In this document: positions 1 to 63,804 of the stretch, piece by piece
How positions within the stretch are numbered: position 1 is the first letter of the stretch
Layout of the letters: every line of letters begins with the position of its first letter
NCBI GenBank assembly: GCA_030549815.1
Contig: JAUQQQ010000009.1
Location: forward strand, 13,452 to 77,451
Length of the DNA stretch: 64,000 nt
Direction: 5' to 3'
Origin: a bacterium
GTDB lineage: Bacteria > DRYD01
Made by a program: the position numbers and the translations under genes
Notes under the pieces: generated by a model
What the model was told of the DNA's origin: nothing
Databases searched by the model: none
Seen by the model: the letters and a program-made list of their open reading frames with translations, nothing else

Positions 1-455
1 ACTTAGAAAAAAGCCTCGTCTTAGCTTTCCAAGTTTTTGAAGTAACTAACAAAGTAATCTTAGCACTTAATTTGGTAGACGAAGCAAAAAGAAAAGGAAT
101 AATAATAGATGTAGAAAAACTACAAGAAAAACTTAAAGTCCCCATAATACCCATTATAGCACAAACAGGATACAATGTAGATAACCTTATATACAAAGCA
201 CTCTCAATAATAAAAGGGGAAATAAAAGTTAATCCAAACAAATATACTCCACCACCAGAATTGGAAAAAATTATCCAAGATATACAAAAAGAAATAACCG
301 AATATTACCCCGAAATAAAAAACCATCCATTCTTACGATGGATAATCCTAAGAATATTGGAAGGAGACAAAATTATAATCGAAATGATTAAAAATAAAAA
401 CCTAAAAACAGTAGAAGAAAAAATAAAAAATAAACCTATACTACCCATCCTATGA
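1..455 (+). CDS. feoB: FeoB GTPase domain, C-terminal part (5' end outside window)
   Basis: Ferrous iron transporter, cytosolic G-protein part. The frame is open from base 3, so the gene starts upstream. Around bases 60-90 it reads LNLVDEAKRKG, the G4 guanine-specificity motif (NxxD) in its FeoB form, followed by IIPIIAQTG, which fits the G5 (SAxTG-like) element. A charged helical stretch follows, matching the helical spacer of NFeoB. The protein stops at 455 just where a normal FeoB would enter its membrane domain. That domain is the next gene, overlapping by four bases (ATGA), so the two are almost certainly co-translated. G1-G3 lie before the window. Confidence 0.85.
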   Translation, partial: LEKSLVLAFQVFEVTNKVILALNLVDEAKRKGIIIDVEKLQEKLKVPIIPIIAQTGYNVDNLIYKALSIIKGEIKVNPNKYTPPPELEKIIQDIQKEITEYYPEIKNHPFLRWIILRILEGDKIIIEMIKNKNLKTVEEKIKNKPILPIL

Positions 456-31531: not shown

Positions 31532-32056
31532 ATGAGTTTCATCGATATTTTTGAGGCCACTCACGAAAATAATCTAAAATTAATTAAAGAAATAATCGAA
31601 AAGGGGATCATCGATATAAATAAACAAAATGATTTCGGTAATACGGCTCTTCATATTGCCTCCTTTAGAGGACATAAAAAAATAGTTGAATTTTTATTGG
31701 AGAAAGGAGCAAATCCAAATATTCAAAACAACGTGGGATATACTCCACTTCATGATGCAGCATATTACGGACATTTTGCTATCGTTAAGATTTTAGTAGC
31801 AAATAAAGCTCAGATTAACATAAAAGATAACTACGGAAATACACCACTACACTATGCAACAATCAAAAACAACAAAGAAATCGTAGAATTCCTTATTAAA
31901 TTAGGAGCAGATATTGATGCTAAAAATAATGAAGGAGAAACACCTCTCGATATTGCTCTAAAATTTAATTATAAAGAAATAATAAAATTAATAGAATTTT
32001 ACAAAATAAATCCGCCTCGTGGGGAAGTCAGGCGGAATAAAAATCCCCACAAATAA
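31532..32056 (+). CDS. Ankyrin-repeat protein
   Basis: 174 residues with four to five ankyrin repeats: FGNTALHIASFRGHKKIVEF, VGYTPLHDAAYYGHFAIVKI, YGNTPLHYATIKNNKEIVEF and EGETPLDIALKFNYKEII. No signal peptide. It is a protein-binding module of unknown partner. The last 15 codons (after FYKIN) are encoded by a GC-rich segment predicted to form a pseudoknot (32011-32050), so the C-terminal PPRGEVRR tail may be a by-product of an RNA element. It follows the HEPN gene by about 55 bases. Confidence 0.88.
   Translation: MSFIDIFEATHENNLKLIKEIIEKGIIDINKQNDFGNTALHIASFRGHKKIVEFLLEKGANPNIQNNVGYTPLHDAAYYGHFAIVKILVANKAQINIKDNYGNTPLHYATIKNNKEIVEFLIKLGADIDAKNNEGETPLDIALKFNYKEIIKLIEFYKINPPRGEVRRNKNPHK
32011..32050 (+). 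promoter_or_regulatory. Predicted H-type RNA pseudoknot before the nitroreductase gene
   Basis: Stem 1 TCCGCCT (32011-32017) pairs with AGGCGGA (32030-32036). Its loop holds GTGGGGA (32019-32025), which pairs with TCCCCAC (32044-32050). The stems cross, with a one-base first loop and an A-rich loop 3 (ATAAAAA). It overlaps the ankyrin stop region and ends 12 bases before the nitroreductase ATG. The same layout recurs at 46298-46335. Confidence 0.55.
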
Positions 32057-49546: not shown

Positions 49547-50028
49547 TTTTCCACGTCTTCCTTCTTTGTTTTTCCAGTTAAAGTGAGTATAAACTTAATT
49601 TTCATACTGTCAGCACAGAGAAAATCCACCAAACTATCTCCTATAAAATAACTATTCTCCACGTCCACCGAAAATCTTTCTATTGCTTTCTTAAGCATCC
49701 AATTTTTAGGTTTTCTACACCTGCAATTCTCCTCTTCTTTATGAGGACAAAAATATAAAGCACTAAGATTAAAACGATTTACTAAATACATAGATAAATC
49801 AACAAAAAATCTGTAATTCACAATTCCTTTGTTAATACCAGATTGATTAGTTATTACGATAAATTTGTAGTATTTTTTATGTTTTTCCCAAAAATCTACA
49901 AAACTTTCTAATACTTCGAATTCGTGTATATTTTTTACGTAATCATTTTCTAAGTATTTATTTATAACTCCGTCTCTATCTAAGAATACGCATCTATATA
50001 TAGTTTCTACCACCACCAATAATTCCAA
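49486..50028 (-). CDS. HAD phosphatase, GmhB/HisB-N type
   Basis: About 175 residues. FLDRDGVINKYLENDYVK is HAD motif I with both Asp residues, VITNQSGINKG is motif II, and YFIGDSLVDFLCA motif IV. CPHKEEENCRCRKPKN supplies the zinc loop (C-x-H-...-C-x-C) of GmhB and HisB-N. It is either a heptose-1,7-bisphosphate phosphatase or a histidinol-phosphatase. The start is TTG at 50028 or a nearby GTG, both inside the 3' end of the Tyr/Trp-rich gene; its 3' end overlaps the lyase gene. Confidence 0.87.
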   Translation of the reverse strand: MELLVVVETIYRCVFLDRDGVINKYLENDYVKNIHEFEVLESFVDFWEKHKKYYKFIVITNQSGINKGIVNYRFFVDLSMYLVNRFNLSALYFCPHKEEENCRCRKPKNWMLKKAIERFSVDVENSYFIGDSLVDFLCADSMKIKFILTLTGKTKKEDVEKWIKKPFKIVENLSLLMLPT

Positions 50029-50474
50029 CCAAAGTTATACCAACATGGGCTATAAAAGTATGAGTAATACATTGGATAATAAAAAGGATAACTATAAGGC
50101 ATCAAACCACCCAAAGCTAATCCCGTTAATAAGCCCAATCCACCAACAGCCAAATATTTCCACAAATTACTTCCAGTTCCCTGAGTATAAGAAGCTTGAT
50201 TTATATAAGTTGGATTATAAGTTGCAGAAGGACCATAAAATGGGTTTATTCCTTGTTGCATTTGATAAAACGGATTTTGGACAAAAGGATTCTCATTTCC
50301 AACAGGAGGAACTATTTTTGAATTATCAATACCTTGGTTAACAATTACAAAATCATTTGGATTTTTAACATCAGCATTATTAACATCTTGAGTTTGATTA
50401 GTTTGAAATTGGTTATTGGTTTGGACTTGATTTGTGTTTATTTGATTAGTTCCCAGCTTTTTTATTTCTGTCAT
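50007..50474 (-). CDS. Asn/Gln-rich protein with Gly-rich membrane helix and Tyr/Trp-rich tail
   Basis: 155 residues from ATG 50474, which overlaps the upstream stop (ATGA). No family recognised. Residues 1-100 are Asn/Gln/Thr-rich with short repeats (TNQINTNQVQTNNQFQTNQT), like prion-type linkers, then NPFYQMQQGINPFYG. A glycine-zipper membrane helix (YLAVGGLGLLTGLALGGL) follows, and the chain ends in about 35 residues dominated by Tyr, Phe, Trp and Pro, finishing WWW. It is the third member of an operon with the repeat protein at 50834-51385. A surface or membrane-bound assembly is a guess. Confidence 0.6.
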   Translation of the reverse strand: MTEIKKLGTNQINTNQVQTNNQFQTNQTQDVNNADVKNPNDFVIVNQGIDNSKIVPPVGNENPFVQNPFYQMQQGINPFYGPSATYNPTYINQASYTQGTGSNLWKYLAVGGLGLLTGLALGGLMPYSYPFYYPMYYSYFYSPCWYNFGWNYWWW

Positions 50475-50779
50475 AACATCACCCCCCAGGGTATTACAAA
50501 TGGTATGTAAGGAACAAAAGGTATAGGGAAACACCAAAAATAAGGACTAAATAAAAACGGAAAATAAAAATTATAAAAATTATAATAATAAGGGAAAGAA
50601 AAATTCCCCTCAAACTTGTTATTGTATGTTACAGGCTCATTGTAATTATTATTTATTATATAAACATTATTGGCGTTTATCTCTACGTTTTCACCTTTTA
50701 TTCCTATTTGTTCTACTTTAGGTTTATAAAAAGTAGGTGGCGTTTGATTTTTAAATTGATTTACTGGATTTATACTCAT
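50471..50779 (-). CDS. Small protein with one GIKGENV repeat and an aromatic-rich tail
   Basis: 102 residues. The N-terminal 22 residues are Asn/Gln/Pro-rich; residues 23-48 read VEQIGIKGENVEINANNVYI, one copy of the repeat that builds the neighbouring protein at 50834-51385. The last 50 residues are almost only Phe, Tyr, Pro, Ile and Val (PFLFSPYFWCFPIPFVPYIP), very hydrophobic but Pro-broken, so not a standard membrane helix. Upstream AGTAGGTGGAG suits translation. No family recognised. The shared repeat and the operon suggest the proteins assemble together. Confidence 0.65.
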   Translation of the reverse strand: MSINPVNQFKNQTPPTFYKPKVEQIGIKGENVEINANNVYIINNNYNEPVTYNNKFEGNFSFPYYYNFYNFYFPFLFSPYFWCFPIPFVPYIPFVIPWGVML

Positions 50780-50833
50780 TTTTACTCCACCTACTTTTTA
50801 TTTATTCTTTCTTATCTTTTTCTCCTTTATTAG

Positions 50834-51385
50834 TTATTTTTTCTTTATTTTTGCTTGTTTAATACCTACGACATTATCAAACATTTGAAAATCATTAACT
50901 TTAGCATCCATATTATTAGCTTTTACTCCAACTGTATTTTCATTAATAACCACTTTATCTCCTTTAACAAATACATTCTCACCAACAATACCTTTTTGAT
51001 TAGAAGATATAACAACTGTTTGTCCTTTTACAGAGGCAACATTTTCTCCCTTAACACCGGTTTCATTTCCTGTTATGTTAATGACTCCATCACTTTTCAA
51101 ACCAAGATTTTTAGAATCTACACCAGTGGTATTATTAGAAATCGTAGTAGATGTAGTACTTTTAAGACCCACATTTGACGCCTTTATTCCAACTTTGTTA
51201 GAAGAAATATTCAATTCAGCAGTATTTGTTGATAAATTAACAGTATCAATACCCTTATCATTTAAAGTAATATCAAGCTTTCCACCTTCTATCTTTACAG
51301 TTTTACCTTTTATTCCAACATCATTATTTTTTATAAGGACGTTTCCAGCTTGTATGTTTATTTTTCCTCCAACTATTCCTGCCAT
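50834..51385 (-). CDS. Repeat protein of eight to nine 21-22-residue GIKGxNV units
   Basis: 183 residues from ATG 51385, chosen because GGAGGTG lies nine bases upstream; the frame opens at 51403. The whole protein is a tandem repeat of the form G-[IV]-x-x-x-N-[VL]-x-x-K-x(5)-I-x-x-N-x-x, e.g. GIKGKTVKIEGGKLDITLND, GVKGENVASVKGQTVVISSN and GIVGENVFVKGDKVVINENT. Regular alternation of Val/Ile with Asn and Gly suggests a beta-solenoid or beta-helix. There is no signal peptide or Cys. No family recognised. It is first in a five-gene minus-strand run that includes a HAD phosphatase and an amino-acid lyase. Confidence 0.75.
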   Translation of the reverse strand: MAGIVGGKINIQAGNVLIKNNDVGIKGKTVKIEGGKLDITLNDKGIDTVNLSTNTAELNISSNKVGIKASNVGLKSTTSTTISNNTTGVDSKNLGLKSDGVINITGNETGVKGENVASVKGQTVVISSNQKGIVGENVFVKGDKVVINENTVGVKANNMDAKVNDFQMFDNVVGIKQAKIKKK

Positions 51386-51598: not shown

Positions 51599-52888
51599 AT
51601 GCATGATTTGAACTTAATAACTCAAAATGCAGAAAAATATAAATATTATTTACAAATAAGAAATGAAAATCCCAAAATAATTGATCAAATCCTTGAAATT
51701 AACCGCAAAAGGAAAGAATTAATTTCCACTATAAACAATTTGAGAAGTCAAAAAAATTCTATATCCGAAAAAATAGGAAGAAAACAATATTCAAATGAGC
51801 AAGAAAAACAGGAATTGATAAATGAATCAAACAAAATAGATCAAGAGATAAAAAATTTGGAGCCGGTTCTTAATGAAATAGAAGAAAACTTAAAAAATAT
51901 CTTACTAAATGTCCCAAATATTGTTAGTCCTGATGTACCAGTAGGAAAGTCATCCGATGAAAATGTAGTAGTTTATGAAGAAGGAGAAAAACCAGCATTT
52001 GATTTCGAGCCTTTACCTCACTGGGAAATAGCCGAAAACATAAGTATTATCGATTTTGAAAGAGGGGTAAAACTTTCAGGTTCCCGATTTTACATAATGA
52101 AAGGTAAATTAGCTAAACTTCAAAGAGCTTTAATAAATTTTTTCCTTGATTTTCACATAGAAAAACATAACTACAAGGAACTTTATGTTCCGTTCATAGT
52201 AAAAAGACACTGTTTAGAAGGAGCAGGACAACTACCAAAATTTGAAGACAATCTTTACAAAGATAGTGAAGATGATATGTGGTTAGTCCCGACAGCAGAA
52301 GTTCCCCTTACTAACATATATAGAGACGAAATATTACCAGCAGATGTTCTACCCCTTTATTACGTTGCATATACACCATGTTTTAGAAAAGAAAAAATAG
52401 CAGCAGGTAGAGATGTAAGAGGAATAAAAAGAGGTCATCAATTTGATAAAGTAGAGCTATATAAATTCGTCCTACCTGAAAATAGCGATTATGAATTAGA
52501 AAAATTAGTCCAAGATGCATGTGATATTTTAAGAGCATTAGAATTAAATTATAGAGTCGTTAAACTATGTAGTGGGGATTTGGGATTTGCTGCTGCAAAA
52601 ACATACGACATAGAAGTATGGGCAGCAGGATGCAAAGAATGGTTAGAAGTAAGTTCTTGTAGCAATGTGCTCGATTTCCAAGCAAGAAGAGCAAATATAA
52701 GATTCAAAAGGACACCTACATCAAAACCTGAATTCATACATACTCTCAACGGCTCAGGATTGGCACTACCACGAGTAGTAATAGCAATATTAGAAAATTA
52801 TCAACAAAAAGACGGAACAATAAAAATCCCCAAAGTCCTTCAACCATATACAAAATTTGATAAAATAGAAATGCATTGGAAATACTAA
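51599..52888 (+). CDS. serS: Seryl-tRNA synthetase
   Basis: 429 residues, normal length. Residues 1-110 are the long antiparallel coiled-coil arm that grips the tRNA-Ser variable arm. The class II core follows: motif 2 in [29 protein letters not shown], and motif 3 in [26 protein letters not shown] precedes the ATG. Reverse gyrase starts two bases after the stop, so the two are co-transcribed. Confidence 0.97.
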
Positions 52889-52890
52889 TA

Positions 52891-55800
52891 ATGAATATAG
52901 AAGTTTTATATTTAGAAAAACCACAATCGGTTATAGATATTGAAAAAATTGAAAAAGAAGTTATAGATTTCGAAAAGTTTTTTGAATACTGTTTTGGATA
53001 TAGATTAAAATCAATTCAAAGAAATTATGCAAAGAGATTTTTTGCAAACTTTTCATTTTCCGTAGTAGCACCAACAGGAACAGGTAAAACAATACTTGGT
53101 TTATTTCTCGCTTTCTATAACTCCTTTGTAAAACAAAATAAAAGCCTGCTTATTTTTCCAACCCAATTATTAGTTAAACAATCATACGACATCTTTAACA
53201 AATACTTACCAAGAATAGAAGAATATATTAAAAGAAAAATCGGGGAAGAAGAGTATTTGTTTTTTCTTAGTTTCGAAAATAAAAATAAAAAAGAAGAAAA
53301 AATAAGCAGAATAAGTAATTGTAAATTACTTTCCATAACGAACCAATTTTTGTCAAGAAGGTTTGATTTAATAGAAAATAAATATGATTACATTTTCGTA
53401 GATGATTTAGATAGTATTTCAAAGGGATCAAAAAATACTATAAGAATCCTTAAATTGTTAGGTTTTAACCAAAAAATCATCGATTTAGCGAAACAATCCT
53501 CCTTCGAAGTATCACCAGAATTAGCAAGTGAAATAGAGCAAGTGAAAGATAAAATAGGAGTTTTAGTCATATCTTCTGCAACACTGAGAAAAGGAATAAA
53601 CAGCATATTATTCAGGAAATTACTAAATTTTGACATAGGTAGCTCAATAAATTTCGTAAGAAATATAGACGATGTTTTTATCGGCAAAAAAGATATTGAA
53701 AAATTAAAGAGTATTTTAGAACAGATGGGCCCAGGAGCTATAATATTCACAACATCTCAAGAAGAAGCACAGATGTTAGAAAAAATTATACCAAACAGTA
53801 AGTTCATTACTTCCAAAAACATAAAAAAAATAGATGACTTAATCGATATATACGAAGAATTTATTGATGAAGACATTTTTACAGAAAATGAAAACGAAAA
53901 TAACGAAGAACAATCAAATAATGAAGATACCGAAACAGAAGAATTTATTGAATCTATCAATGAGAACATAAACTATCTTATAGGTATTGCATCTCCTTAT
54001 AGTATTTTAGTGAGAGGATTAGACTTACCATATAAAATAAGGTACGTAGTATTTTGGGGAATACCAAAAAGGAAAATCGACTTAAAAAATTTAGACAACT
54101 ATAGAAATCTATACCCTATTCAAAAATTACTATCAAACATTTTTTTCAAAAGAAAAATGGTTTCATTGGAAAAAATAAAAGAATTCATCAATAACATAGA
54201 ACAACCCAAAATTATTTCTTCCTTTGTTATCAAAGATAACTTTTTGTATTCAATAGATATAAAAACATACTTACAAGCATCAGGAAGATGTTCACGCATA
54301 ACCCCAAATGGTATAACAAAAGGTGTTAGTTTTATTTTTGATGATGAAATATTTCTCGAGCCATTCTCTAAAAACGCTTACTTCAACAATTTTGAAGTAA
54401 AACAAGAAATAGATATACAAAAAACAAAAGAAGAAATAGATGCAACGAGGAAAAAAGACATTTCAAACAATGGTTTTGAATTAGATTTTAAAACCTATTT
54501 AATGATAGTAGAAAGCCCTACGAAAGCAAAGCAAATTGCACAAATGTTTGGGACTCCTGGGATAACAAAAATAGGAAATGTCCAAGCTTTTGAAGTTCTA
54601 AGCCCCATTGGAGTATTAATTATTATTCCCTCTTTAGGACATGTCACAGAACTTGCTGTAGATAAAGATATTAATATAGAAGGGAACAACATATACAACG
54701 TTATTATAAATAAAAACGGAGAAATAAAAGAAGTAAAAACTTTATACTGCTCGATAAAAAAATGTAAAAATTGCAATAAAACCTTTGCATCTATATCTTC
54801 AAAATGTATATATTGTTCATCGTCGGAAATAGTAAGTAGTTTAAACAACGTTATAAGCTTAAAAACTCTAAGTTATTTTGTTGATGGAGTCTTGGTTGCC
54901 ACAGATCCTGATAGTGAAGGAGAAAAAATATCTTTCGACCTTATAAATCTAATTAATCCACAAAATCATAGCAGAATAGTTTTTAATGAAATAACAAAAA
55001 AAGCAATTATAAAAGCTTTAAGTAATCCTATAAAAATAAGGAGAGAGTTAGTTAATGCTCAACTCATAAGAAGGATAGAAGACAGATGGATAGGGTTCGC
55101 ACTAAGTAAAATTCTACAAGAAGAGATGGAAGATTATAATATTTCTGCAGGTAGGGTCCAAAGCCCAGTCCTACACTGGATCACTGAAAAATACAAAGAA
55201 TATAACGATAAGAAAAAATTTGCTATAGTAGAAGATTTTAACATACAGTTCATTAATTCAGAAATCAAAGGAGTAGCAGAATTAGAAATAAAAATTATAG
55301 ATGAATACTGGCAAAAAATCAATATACTTCCTTTTAATACTTCAGACATACTAATATTTGCTAATAATGTCCTAAAACTTAACTCCCAAGAGACTATGAA
55401 AATTTTACAAAAATTATTTGAAAATGGACTTATAACTTACCACAGAACGGATAGCTACTACATATCTGATCAAGGAATAAACATAGCTAAAGAAATATAT
55501 AATAAAAAAGGATTTTCTTTCAATTATAGGACATTTGGAGAACCACATGCACATGAAGCAATAAGAATAACAAAACCATTAGAACCAGAAGACATAAAGA
55601 TATTCTACCAAGATAAACTTTCTCCTCAAGATTTCAGAGTATATGAAATGATATTCAGGAGATTTTTAGCTTGCTTTTCCGGAGAAAATAAAGTAAAAAT
55701 AGCAAAATACAAATTTATATTAAGACAAGAAGAAAAGATAAGTGAATTAGAACAAGAAAGAATTGTAGAAGTAGATGGCTTAGGATTTGAAATATTTCCA

Positions 55801-56193
55801 TATCTTTCCTATAAAGGACAAAAATTAGAAGAAGGAAAACATAAAGTAAAGGTAAGGAATATAAAAAAACCAACAACCATGCTTTACTCACAAGCAGATA
55901 TAATTAAAATGATGAAAGAAAAAGAAATAGGAAGGCCATCAACCTACGCTTTTACAATACAAAAACTACTATCCAGAGCATATGTAATCGAAAAATTTAA
56001 CAGATTAATCCCAACCAAAAAAGGAATTAAAGTAGATCAAATACTAACAGAAAAATATTACTCTTTTGTTAATGAACAAAGAACAAAGGAATTATTAAAA
56101 AAGATAGACGAAGTAGAACAAAATATTAAAGAACCCATTAATGTAATAAAGGAATTGTTAGAAGAAACCCAACTATTCATACATACCCCATAA
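52891..56193 (+). CDS. rgy: Reverse gyrase
   Basis: 1100 residues from the ATG at 52891 (an in-frame TTG lies 15 bases upstream, inside serS). An SF2 helicase half has Walker A APTGTGKT near residue 60, VDDLDS near 170 and SSATL near 228. The type IA topoisomerase half begins near 535 with Toprim IVESPTKAKQIAQMFG, a Cys cluster (CKNCNKTF...CIYCS, about 625-645), ATDPDSEGEKI near 670 and the catalytic Tyr of TYHRTDSYYIS near 850. The usual N-terminal zinc finger is absent. It adds positive supercoils and is the hallmark of life at high temperature. Confidence 0.95.
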   Translation: MNIEVLYLEKPQSVIDIEKIEKEVIDFEKFFEYCFGYRLKSIQRNYAKRFFANFSFSVVAPTGTGKTILGLFLAFYNSFVKQNKSLLIFPTQLLVKQSYDIFNKYLPRIEEYIKRKIGEEEYLFFLSFENKNKKEEKISRISNCKLLSITNQFLSRRFDLIENKYDYIFVDDLDSISKGSKNTIRILKLLGFNQKIIDLAKQSSFEVSPELASEIEQVKDKIGVLVISSATLRKGINSILFRKLLNFDIGSSINFVRNIDDVFIGKKDIEKLKSILEQMGPGAIIFTTSQEEAQMLEKIIPNSKFITSKNIKKIDDLIDIYEEFIDEDIFTENENENNEEQSNNEDTETEEFIESINENINYLIGIASPYSILVRGLDLPYKIRYVVFWGIPKRKIDLKNLDNYRNLYPIQKLLSNIFFKRKMVSLEKIKEFINNIEQPKIISSFVIKDNFLYSIDIKTYLQASGRCSRITPNGITKGVSFIFDDEIFLEPFSKNAYFNNFEVKQEIDIQKTKEEIDATRKKDISNNGFELDFKTYLMIVESPTKAKQIAQMFGTPGITKIGNVQAFEVLSPIGVLIIIPSLGHVTELAVDKDINIEGNNIYNVIINKNGEIKEVKTLYCSIKKCKNCNKTFASISSKCIYCSSSEIVSSLNNVISLKTLSYFVDGVLVATDPDSEGEKISFDLINLINPQNHSRIVFNEITKKAIIKALSNPIKIRRELVNAQLIRRIEDRWIGFALSKILQEEMEDYNISAGRVQSPVLHWITEKYKEYNDKKKFAIVEDFNIQFINSEIKGVAELEIKIIDEYWQKINILPFNTSDILIFANNVLKLNSQETMKILQKLFENGLITYHRTDSYYISDQGINIAKEIYNKKGFSFNYRTFGEPHAHEAIRITKPLEPEDIKIFYQDKLSPQDFRVYEMIFRRFLACFSGENKVKIAKYKFILRQEEKISELEQERIVEVDGLGFEIFPYLSYKGQKLEEGKHKVKVRNIKKPTTMLYSQADIIKMMKEKEIGRPSTYAFTIQKLLSRAYVIEKFNRLIPTKKGIKVDQILTEKYYSFVNEQRTKELLKKIDEVEQNIKEPINVIKELLEETQLFIHTP

Positions 56194-60578: not shown

Positions 60579-60729
60579 AACTATATACAACATCCAGTAA
60601 AATACCTTTGGTGTTAAATTAAATAATATTCTTTATCAGTATTTTCAATAATAAAAAGGTAAGGTAGACTTGAATTTGTAAATATAAAATGTAGGGAATT
60701 TTGTAAAATTTTGGGGAATGTCAATTATA

Positions 60730-62265
60730 ATGAAAAAGCTACCAATTGGTATAAGCAGTTTTGAAGAAATAAGAACTGAAGGTTACTACTACGTCGATAA
60801 AACACATTTTGTAAAAAAATTAGTTGATGAAGGAAAATATTATTTTTTATCTCGTCCCAGACGCTTTGGTAAAAGCCTTTTTGTTGATACTCTAAAATCT
60901 GCCTTCGAAGCAAAAAAAGAATTATTTACAGGGTTGTATCTCGAAAACAACTGGAATTGGAACCAAAATTATCCAGTTATTAGAATTTCTTTCGCAAAAG
61001 ATACATTAAGTGTTGATGACTTAAAAAATAGGATCAGCTCAATACTAAAGGAAAAAGCAACACAAGAACACATAGAAATAGAAGAAAGCAAAAGCATAGG
61101 AACAATGTTAGAAAATTTAGTCAAAAAACTATATACAAAAAATAATAAAAAAGTAGTACTATTAGTAGATGAATACGATAAAGCTATTTTAGATAACATA
61201 GAACATAGAGAAAAAGCAGAAACTATCAGAAAAGAATTGAAAGAATTCTACTCTGTATTAAAAGACCTTGATCAATATTTAAAGTTTGTCTTTATTACAG
61301 GAATAAGCAAGTTCGCCAAAATCTCTCTTTTTAGGGGTTTTGGGGCCCCGGTTTGTGGGTTAAACCAATTAGAAGATATTAGCCTAAACCAAGAATATGG
61401 CGATATATGCGGATACACTGAAAAAGAATTATTGTTTACATTTGGAGAAAGAATAAAGGAACAAGAGATAGAAGGCATACGAAACTGGTATAACGGCTAC
61501 TGGTGGTTAAGTAGCAAAATTTACAATCCTTTCGATGTCTTGCTTTATTTAAAAAATAAATCTTATAGCAGCTATTGGTACGAAACTGGAAATCCTGAAG
61601 TATTAATAAAACTCATAAAACATAATAAGTACGAAATTCCTAATTTGGAATTGATGTTGTCTGAAGAAGACTTAAACAGAGTTGATGTAGACAAAATAAG
61701 CATAGAAGCTTTAATGTTCCAAACAGGATATTTAACAATACACAAAGTAAAAGAAGAATACAGTAGAAAGTTTTATAAATTAAAATTTCCCAATAAAGAA
61801 GTACAAATTAGCTTTAATGAAAACTTGTTAAGAGAGTTCTTAAAAGATTGGAAAGGTGAAGATAGTGAAATCAATCCTTTACGAAAAGCTTTGGAAAATT
61901 TTGATACACAAGAAATAGAATTTAGAATTAATAAACTCCTTGAAAATATACCCTATGATTTATATGGAAACGATGAAAAAAGTATAAAATCATTCCTGTA
62001 TGTTTATTTGTATTCTACAGGATTTGAATGTAATGCAGAATTGCATACCAAATTGGGAAGAATTGATATTATTCTTAAGACTCCCAACAAAAAAATATAC
62101 ATTTTCGAAATTAAGATAGATAAAGATGAAGAAAAAGCACTAAAACAAATAAAAAATAAAGAATATTATGCTAAGTATACTTTAGAAGAAAATGTAATAA
62201 TATGTGGAATGAATTTTAATACTAAAAAAAGAAAAATGTATTATATGTGGGAAACTATACAATAA
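60730..62265 (+). CDS. AAA-ATPase / PD-(D/E)XK nuclease family protein, copy 1
   Basis: 511 residues from ATG 60730, matched to the starts of copies 2 and 3; the frame opens at 60718. The AAA-ATPase-like domain has the modified P-loop SRPRRFGKSLFVDTLKS near residue 37-53 and Walker B VVLLVDEYDKAIL near 140. The C-terminal nuclease-like domain (DUF1703) has the core LGRIDIILKTPNKKIYIFEI with Asp and Glu-x-Lys. Such proteins are common in multicopy in several anaerobes; their job is unknown. Compared with copy 2 it carries a seven-residue insert (RGFGAPVC for S) from a 21-bp GC-rich insertion at 61335-61355. It lacks the GAAAGGTGG ribosome site of the other copies. Confidence 0.88.
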   Translation: MKKLPIGISSFEEIRTEGYYYVDKTHFVKKLVDEGKYYFLSRPRRFGKSLFVDTLKSAFEAKKELFTGLYLENNWNWNQNYPVIRISFAKDTLSVDDLKNRISSILKEKATQEHIEIEESKSIGTMLENLVKKLYTKNNKKVVLLVDEYDKAILDNIEHREKAETIRKELKEFYSVLKDLDQYLKFVFITGISKFAKISLFRGFGAPVCGLNQLEDISLNQEYGDICGYTEKELLFTFGERIKEQEIEGIRNWYNGYWWLSSKIYNPFDVLLYLKNKSYSSYWYETGNPEVLIKLIKHNKYEIPNLELMLSEEDLNRVDVDKISIEALMFQTGYLTIHKVKEEYSRKFYKLKFPNKEVQISFNENLLREFLKDWKGEDSEINPLRKALENFDTQEIEFRINKLLENIPYDLYGNDEKSIKSFLYVYLYSTGFECNAELHTKLGRIDIILKTPNKKIYIFEIKIDKDEEKALKQIKNKEYYAKYTLEENVIICGMNFNTKKRKMYYMWETIQ

Positions 62266-62272
62266 GTACTCA

Positions 62273-62399
62273 GAAAGGTGGTTTATATGAAAAAGCTACC
62301 AATTGGTATAAGCAGTTTTGAAGAAATAAGAACTGAAGGTTACTACTATGTCGATAAAACACATTTTGTTAAAAAATTAGTTGATGAAGGGAAATACTA
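62273..62399 (+). repeat. 127-bp direct repeat, first copy
   Basis: Identical over its full visible length to 63874-64000. It covers the GAAAGGTGG ribosome site and the first 38 codons of the ATPase genes, and the match may continue beyond the window. Confidence 0.95.
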
Positions 62400-63804
62400 T
62401 TTTTTATCTCGTCCCAGACGCTTTGGTAAAAGTCTTTTCGTTGATACTTTAAAATCTGCTTTCGAAGGAAAAAAAGAATTATTTACAGGGTTGTATCTCG
62501 AAAACAATTGGAACTGGAACCAAAATTATCCAGTTGTAAGGTTTTCTTTTGATGGAGGTAAAGTAGAAAACAAGCAAGAAATGAAAAAGTATATCAATTC
62601 AATAATAAGATTTTGGAGTAGGAATTATGAAGTAGAAATAGAAGAGAAACTATACTATTCTATGTTAACAGAACTAATTTATAAAATATACAAAAAAACA
62701 GGAAAAAAGGTAGTTTTACTGATAGATGAATATGACAAACCAATATTAGACAACATAGAAAAAAAGGAGATTGCAGAAGAAATAAGAGAAGTATTGAAAG
62801 GATTTTATCAAACCATCAAAGGTTTAGATCAATATTTAAAGTTCGTCTTTATTACAGGAATAAGCAAGTTCGCCAAAATCTCCCTTTTTAGTGGATTAAA
62901 CCAATTAGAAGATATAAGTTTAATAAGTGAATATGGAGATATATGTGGATATACAGAGGAAGAATTATTAAAAGTATTTGGAGGTTTGATAAAAGGAGAT
63001 AAAGAGTTAGAGAAGATAAGAGAGTGGTATAATGGATATTGCTGGCTGGCTAGTAAAATATACAACCCTTTCGATATATTGTTGTATCTAAAATCAAAAA
63101 GGTTTGTGCCATACTGGTATAAAACAGGTACTCCTGAATTATTGATAAAACTAATTAAACAAAATAATTACGATATCTCTGGAATAGATAACATTGAAAT
63201 TATCGAAAGTGCCTTAGATAAATTCGACATCGATCAAATCTCTATTGAAGCTCTAATGTTTCAAACTGGATACCTAACTATCCATACTTACAAAGATACC
63301 CTTACAGAAAGAAAGTATAAGCTAAGATTCCCTAATAAGGAAGTTGAGTATAGTTTTGGCATAACCATATTATCTCAGTTAATGAAAGTAGATAAAATTG
63401 ATCTAGAATTATCAAGCAAATCCGAAGAACTTCAAAATGCTTTAATCAATGAGAATTTAGAAAAATTAAAAGATCTATTAGAAAGTTTATTAAGAAGTAT
63501 TTCTTATGAATGGTACGACCGGAGTGAAAAAAGTTTTGGGAGTGCAGTTTATGGATTCCTATACTCCACTGGCTTTGAATGTATCACCGAAAAACATACT
63601 AACAAAGGCAGAATGGACCTACTTGTCATTACACCTAACAAGAAAAAGTATATATTTGAACTTAAAATAGTAAGTCAAGACCAAAAAGGTAAATCTATTC
63701 AACAGGTTATTCAAAAAGAATATCACAAAGGTATTGAAGAAGCTCATATTATAGGCATAGAATTCAACCCTCAAACTCGAAACTTCTTTATCTTTTCACA
63801 ATAA
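62287..63804 (+). CDS. AAA-ATPase / PD-(D/E)XK nuclease family protein, copy 2
   Basis: 505 residues from ATG 62287 with AAGGTGG upstream. RPRRFGKSLFVDTLKSAFEG is the P-loop region and VVLLIDEYDKPIL Walker B; GISKFAKISLFSGLNQLEDI is the conserved middle block. The C-terminal NKGRMDLLVITPNKKKYIFE is the PD-(D/E)XK-like core. The first roughly 85 codons are nearly identical to copy 1; residues between the P-loop region and Walker B, and most of the C-terminus, differ strongly. It begins 20 bases after copy 1. Confidence 0.9.
   Translation: MKKLPIGISSFEEIRTEGYYYVDKTHFVKKLVDEGKYYFLSRPRRFGKSLFVDTLKSAFEGKKELFTGLYLENNWNWNQNYPVVRFSFDGGKVENKQEMKKYINSIIRFWSRNYEVEIEEKLYYSMLTELIYKIYKKTGKKVVLLIDEYDKPILDNIEKKEIAEEIREVLKGFYQTIKGLDQYLKFVFITGISKFAKISLFSGLNQLEDISLISEYGDICGYTEEELLKVFGGLIKGDKELEKIREWYNGYCWLASKIYNPFDILLYLKSKRFVPYWYKTGTPELLIKLIKQNNYDISGIDNIEIIESALDKFDIDQISIEALMFQTGYLTIHTYKDTLTERKYKLRFPNKEVEYSFGITILSQLMKVDKIDLELSSKSEELQNALINENLEKLKDLLESLLRSISYEWYDRSEKSFGSAVYGFLYSTGFECITEKHTNKGRMDLLVITPNKKKYIFELKIVSQDQKGKSIQQVIQKEYHKGIEEAHIIGIEFNPQTRNFFIFSQ

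What the first reader, a model, noticed from the sequence alone, without database searches (positions are those of the whole stretch)
50007..51385. Unrecognised three-protein system built on a 21-22-residue GIKGENV repeat
One protein is eight to nine tandem units of a Gly-Ile/Val-Asn repeat that should fold as a beta-solenoid. The next carries one unit fused to a Phe/Tyr/Pro tail. The third has a prion-like Asn/Gln linker, a glycine-zipper helix and a Tyr/Trp tail. The shared unit and tight operon suggest a repeat scaffold capturing or docking with membrane-tethered adaptors, possibly a surface filament or compartment. No family known to me matches.
Basis: partly seen in the sequence, partly recalled or inferred. 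Interest (0 to 1): 0.72.

Follow-up and report, generated by a model that had tools for sequence, protein, structure and literature searches.

The report
Lineage-specific beta-solenoid and membrane-adaptor operon
A heat-loving uncultured bacterial lineage (Calescibacteriota) carries a conserved three-gene unit encoding a rod-like repeat protein, a small partner holding one copy of the same repeat on an aromatic membrane-seeking tail, and a second membrane protein; it probably forms a membrane-tethered scaffold, but no experiment has yet tested this.

Summary
Three minus-strand genes (P1 51385-50834, P2 50779-50471, P3 50474-50007; P2 and P3 overlap by ATGA) are real and under purifying selection. 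The trio is intact and in order in five of the six family genomes held; in the sixth the contig ends inside P2. It was not found in the one order-mate or in ~284 further genomes. Flanking genes differ between the two genera, so the trio is its own unit. The host is a Candidatus Calescibacterium relative. P1 has a true 21-residue period (3 x 7; 0 of 1000 shuffles). AlphaFold2 gives a confident, uncapped beta-helix (pLDDT 89.6). "No known family" is wrong for P1: it passes Pfam PF14262 (Cthe_2159), whose crystal structure is its best structural match (Z 18.6). It is a short, unsecreted variant without the DDG motifs of secreted members. P2 is one complete rung plus an aromatic tail. P3 is an N/Q-rich segment, glycine-zipper helix and Tyr/Trp tail. 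Neither has a known family. Best explanation: a cytoplasmic beta-solenoid rod or filament capped and tethered to the membrane by P2 and P3, working like a bactofilin scaffold without being one. Polymerisation, membrane binding and role are inferred.

The parts
50834..51385 (-). P1: 183-aa beta-solenoid protein, eight 21-22-residue rungs (three 7-residue faces each, Asn and Gly ladders), Lys-rich C-terminus, no signal peptide
   Evidence: period; AF2 pLDDT 89.6; Cthe_2159 fold; PF14262
50471..50779 (-). P2: 102-aa protein, one solenoid rung plus aromatic/Pro tail
50642..50704 (-). P2 rung (GIKGENVEINANNVYIINNNY), the conserved core of P2
   Evidence: predicted as strand with pLDDT ~89 in the read-through model
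50474..50611 (-). P2 Phe/Tyr/Pro tail, strongly interface-partitioning
   Evidence: second strongest 30-mer of 58 window ORFs
50007..50474 (-). P3: 155-aa protein with N/Q-rich segment, glycine-zipper hydrophobic helix and Tyr/Trp tail
50100..50156 (-). P3 glycine-zipper hydrophobic segment (YLAVGGLGLLTGLALGGLM), preceded by invariant LWK
50010..50099 (-). P3 Tyr/Trp tail (PYSYPFYYPMYYSYFYSPCWYNFGWNYWWW), with the helix the most conserved part of P3
   Evidence: strongest interface 30-mer of 58 ORFs

Best explanation
P1 folds into a short, rigid, uncapped right-handed beta-helix rod on the cytoplasmic side (fold: predicted with confidence; location: inferred from the lack of signal peptides). 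Its open ends can stack on further beta-rungs, so P1 either polymerises end to end or serves as a fixed rod (inferred). P2 donates a single matching rung that stacks on an end of the rod, probably the N-terminal one, and its aromatic/Pro tail inserts at the membrane, so P2 caps and tethers the rod (inferred). P3 is a second membrane component: its N/Q-rich segment faces the cytoplasm, the glycine-zipper helix spans and may self-associate in the membrane, and its Tyr/Trp tail lies at or beyond the outer face (inferred from the invariant Lys before the helix and the positive-inside rule). Together they form a nucleotide-independent, membrane-tethered scaffold that works like a bactofilin cytoskeleton, although it is not a bactofilin.
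For: Trio syntenic and intact in two genera with different flanks; one copy per genome; purifying selection on all three. P1: confident all-beta solenoid with no helical cap; right-handed beta-helices superpose at about 2.5-3 A. P2's rung is a full 21-residue repeat and in genus g2 matches P1's first rung best (76 and 67 against 53 for the next rung). The rung motif occurs nowhere else convincing in these genomes. Read-through P1-P2 model: the P2 rung forms strand at pLDDT ~89 between segments that fall below 50, and P1's first rungs become continuous strand. P2 and P3 tails are the two most interface-seeking 30-mers among 58 window ORFs. No Pfam bactofilin in five family members and one order-mate.
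Against: No experiment and no coordinates of a complex. AlphaFold2 tends to stack any rung on a solenoid end (own knowledge), and the read-through construct forces proximity and includes two stops read as Gln plus translated intergenic DNA. One structural alignment (tapirin 6n2b, model 1..249) could instead fit C-terminal docking. In genus g1 P2's rung is no closer to P1's first rung than to others. P2's tail is only moderately hydrophobic on the Kyte-Doolittle scale, so membrane insertion is not certain. P3's link to P1 rests on gene order alone.
Confidence: 0.38

Rival explanations
1. A cell-surface or secreted adhesive/sheath structure: P1 is exported by a non-classical route and binds glycans like Cthe_2159, with the aromatic tails of P2 and P3 as envelope anchors or glycan binders.
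For: P1 shares the Cthe_2159 fold and family match; the protein family binds cellulose and polygalacturonic acid (PMC6712302). Aromatic-rich tails could bind sugars. Pilin-like genes lie near the trio in two genomes.
Against: No signal peptide-like N-terminus in any of the 15 proteins. The DDG motifs of secreted members are absent from P1. The pilin neighbours are not conserved in the other genomes.
Confidence: 0.22
2. An organiser of an intracellular inclusion (lipid, glycogen or protein granule): P2 and P3 coat the surface with their aromatic/Pro tails and P1 forms the outer lattice.
For: Pro-rich aromatic tails and low-complexity N/Q segment; P1's fold relatives bind polysaccharide.
Against: No storage-polymer gene is conserved next to the trio across the two genera. 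P3's conserved LWK plus glycine-zipper helix looks like a bilayer-spanning segment rather than a monolayer hairpin.
Confidence: 0.15
3. A remnant or variant of a phage/type VI spike: P1 is a beta-helix needle.
For: Sub-threshold match to NCBIfam NF041249 Francisella VgrG (24.9 bits, cut-off 100); both are short beta-helical proteins.
Against: No match in phages by tblastn, none in viral contigs, none in PHROGs below E 0.1, no Foldseek match at E<=0.001 in viral models. The neighbours are housekeeping genes, with no tail or sheath genes recognised. The 21-residue 3 x 7 period differs from the octads of gp5-like trimeric helices (own knowledge).
Confidence: 0.04

Closest known systems
Cthe_2159 family (Pfam PF14262; PDB 4PHB/4PEU)
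   Same: Right-handed parallel beta-helix with rungs of about 21 residues; P1 passes the Pfam gathering score and Cthe_2159 is the best structural match (Z 18.6, rmsd 2.9-3.0 A, 178 residues)
   Different: P1 is 183 aa of solenoid only, covers part of the profile (115-202 of 262), has no signal peptide and lacks the DDG motifs seen in secreted members; it sits in an operon with two membrane-seeking partners. Only 14% identity over the structural alignment.
Bactofilins (Pfam PF04519)
   Same: Small cytoplasmic triangular beta-helix without nucleotide-binding domain; bactofilins polymerise end to end and attach to the inner membrane (PMC12448750)
   Different: No PF04519 match even at E 10; rung of 21 rather than about 17-18 residues (own knowledge); bactofilins carry their own membrane-targeting peptide or helix, whereas here separate proteins would anchor the rod
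Halofilin-type bactofilin systems of archaea
   Same: Bactofilin-related cell-shape proteins with more than one component (own knowledge; papers located, not read)
   Different: No sequence relation was tested directly; P2 and P3 match no family

Membership tests
Cthe_2159 (PF14262), applied to P1 | Profile match above the curated cut-off | tested here: met
   29.7-30.1 bits against 25.8; three of five homologues match at E<=1; shuffles and reversal give none; partial profile coverage 115-202/262
Cthe_2159 (PF14262), applied to P1 | Right-handed parallel beta-helix like 4PHB/4PEU | tested here: met
   AF2 pLDDT 89.6; Z 18.6, rmsd 3.0/2.9 A, 178 aligned
Cthe_2159 (PF14262), applied to P1 | Secretion signal | tested here: not met
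   N-termini MAGIVGGKINIQ / MNTGIKGNNINIQ are the first rung itself; no hydrophobic N-terminal segment
Cthe_2159 (PF14262), applied to P1 | Acidic DDG-type turn motifs of secreted members | tested here: not met
   Six DG motifs in the relative L031, at most one DG match and no DDG in any P1 homologue; that these bind Ca2+ is own knowledge
Cthe_2159 (PF14262), applied to P1 | Binding of cellulose/polygalacturonic acid | not testable with these tools
   Biochemical property, reported for the family in PMC6712302
Bactofilin (PF04519) | Profile match | tested here: not met
   Not listed for P1 at E<=10; no PF04519 match in G000-G004 or G006
Bactofilin (PF04519) | End-to-end nucleotide-free polymerisation | not testable with these tools
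   Needs purified protein; the model shows no helical caps
Bactofilin (PF04519) | Structural similarity to solved bactofilins | tested here: inconclusive
   No bactofilin among the 50 rows shown, which does not exclude it
VgrG/gp5-type spike | Match to the family model above cut-off | tested here: not met
   NF041249 24.9 bits against cut-off 100
VgrG/gp5-type spike | Genomic association with tail or T6SS genes | tested here: not met
   Flanks are serS, reverse gyrase, HAD phosphatase, aromatic amino acid lyase or other non-phage genes

The most novel reading that the evidence does not exclude
A cytoskeleton-like scaffold unrelated to bactofilins, in which a split-off solenoid rung (P2) acts as an end-cap and membrane adaptor for a beta-helix rod (P1), so that filament length and tethering are set by capture of a single repeat, with a second membrane protein (P3) completing the system in a phylum where no bactofilin was found.
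Probability: 0.27. Interest if true: 0.75.

Novelty: new variant of a known kind. Interest (0 to 1): 0.5.

Why it matters
If right, it is a second, independent origin of a membrane-tethered beta-helix scaffold in bacteria, using a fold otherwise described in secreted carbohydrate-binding proteins, and a clear case in which one detached repeat serves as docking adaptor for a repeat protein. It also gives the sparsely known phylum Calescibacteriota a lineage-specific system with two new protein families that can be tested by ordinary expression in a laboratory host.

Tried and rejected
Phage or T6SS spike: no phage, viral-contig, PHROG or convincing viral-fold match. Compositional artefact of the Pfam match: three shuffles and the reversal give nothing. 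Wider distribution: no trio member outside the family in ~284 other genomes; a genome-contig scan with P3 gave only five relatives from the same family, with names, and one with the single P1 sequence gave nothing. P1 matches outside the family (profile: L030, L031; single sequence: L007) are large secreted-type proteins with Cthe_2159-like repeats; L031 was confirmed as PF14262. The weakest single-sequence matches (L006, L008) are chance. Other rung-like matches in the family genomes (ribosomal protein uL2 and a GlgC-like protein) look like chance. P2-like matches in G026 and G056 are a metallo-hydrolase-like ORF and a frame with stops. No PDB relative of P1 or P3 by sequence (one chance row for P3). 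Bactofilins are absent from the structural rows shown, which excludes nothing. LpxA/GlmU rows superpose only at about 12 A and were discounted as the opposite handedness. Promoter and terminator scans were no better than chance for promoters.

Full report
Observation. The three minus-strand ORFs exist as described. P1 starts at 51385, where the homologues start and where a GGAGGTG precedes it; P2 is 50779-50471; P3 starts at 50474 inside the P2 stop (ATGA). P1 has a strong 21-residue period with a 7-residue sub-period in all five homologues; no shuffle of 1000 reaches it. Read by eye, its rungs are GIVGGKI-NIQAGNV-LIKNNDV, GIKGKTV-KIEGGKL-DITLNDK and so on: eight rungs of three 7-residue faces, a Gly opening each rung and an Asn near the end of each third face.

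Host and distribution. The window belongs to a 1.59-Mb genome whose relatives carry names such as Candidatus Calescibacterium sp. SKYB25. It encodes a reverse gyrase-like protein (helicase, Toprim and topoisomerase domains in one ORF), in keeping with a hot-spring lineage (PMC4791363). Seven genomes of the phylum are held. P3 is in six of seven, P2 in the same six, and P1 in five; in the sixth (G002/L014) the contig ends inside P2. The seventh genome (same order, 73% complete) shows none of the three. About 284 other genomes have none of them. In one genus the trio lies between serS and a HAD phosphatase; in the other it has unrelated neighbours. Order and intactness are kept, so the trio is the unit. 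All three genes are under purifying selection (dN/dS 0.13-0.39 where dS is not saturated).

P1. AlphaFold2 with five homologues gives pLDDT 89.6, pTM 0.84, strands from residue 8 to 182 and no helix. Against solved structures Cthe_2159 leads (Z 18.6, rmsd 3.0/2.9 A over 178 residues), ahead of other right-handed beta-helices such as the HxuA secretion domain. Pfam agrees: PF14262 at 29.7 bits, above its cut-off of 25.8, with three of five homologues matching at E<=1 and none for shuffles or the reversed sequence. The profile of P1 also reaches proteins of this type in unrelated genomes. P1 nonetheless departs from the described family: no signal peptide-like segment, no DDG motifs, only the solenoid, and a match to only part of the profile. 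No other PF14262 match was found in the relatives searched.

P2. Its conserved core is one full rung; the best P1 partner in genus g2 is P1's first rung (76 and 67 against 53 for the next), while in genus g1 no rung stands out. A profile of the rung finds only P1 and P2 convincingly in these genomes. P1 and P2 are in one frame in the window, so they could be folded as a read-through product (two stops read as Gln). In that model the P2 rung is strand with pLDDT about 89, flanked by segments that fall below 50, and the first P1 rungs change from interrupted to continuous strand, while the last rungs do not. This suggests stacking on the N-terminal end, but it is inference from secondary structure only, the construct forces proximity, and one structural alignment (6n2b) could fit the other end.

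Tails and P3. Among 58 ORFs of the window, the P3 and P2 tails are the two 30-residue stretches with the most favourable interfacial free energy (Wimley-White sums -19.5 and -16.5 kcal/mol; next -12.0). P3 has an invariant LWK before a 19-residue glycine-rich hydrophobic stretch and an almost invariant Tyr/Trp tail, and an N/Q-rich, length-variable N-terminus. No library has a family for P2 or P3.

Mechanism. Shown: conserved trio, beta-helix prediction, shared rung, aromatic tails, no export signal. Inferred: cytoplasmic location, rod or filament formation by open ends, capping and tethering by P2, membrane anchoring of P3. This works like a bactofilin scaffold, in which a small triangular beta-helix polymerises and attaches to the inner membrane (PMC12448750). 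No bactofilin was found in five family members and one order-mate, though these genomes are incomplete. Membership in the bactofilins fails on the profile test. Rivals are a surface/adhesive structure, an inclusion organiser, and (unlikely) a phage-like spike.

Verdict. Real, conserved and lineage-specific; P1's fold family is known, P2 and P3 are new, and the arrangement of rod plus single-rung adaptor is unusual. Function remains inference.

Noticed in passing
window 60721-63804: Two adjacent, similar genes for AAA-ATPase_like/PDDEXK_9 proteins (PF09820 + PF08011) in tandem, probably a duplication.
   Followed up: partly
window 52879-56193: Reverse gyrase-like protein (DEAD + Toprim + Topoisom_bac in one ORF) next to serS, an indicator of a hyperthermophilic life style.
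   Followed up: partly
L009:8278-11226 (-): In genome G003 a 982-aa protein with a pilin-like hydrophobic N-terminus and no Pfam match lies directly upstream of P1 in the same orientation; in G004 pilin-like genes, one with an N-methylation motif, lie on the other strand nearby. Not conserved in the other genomes.
   Followed up: partly
window 31532-32056: Short ORF that reads like an ankyrin-repeat protein.
   Followed up: no
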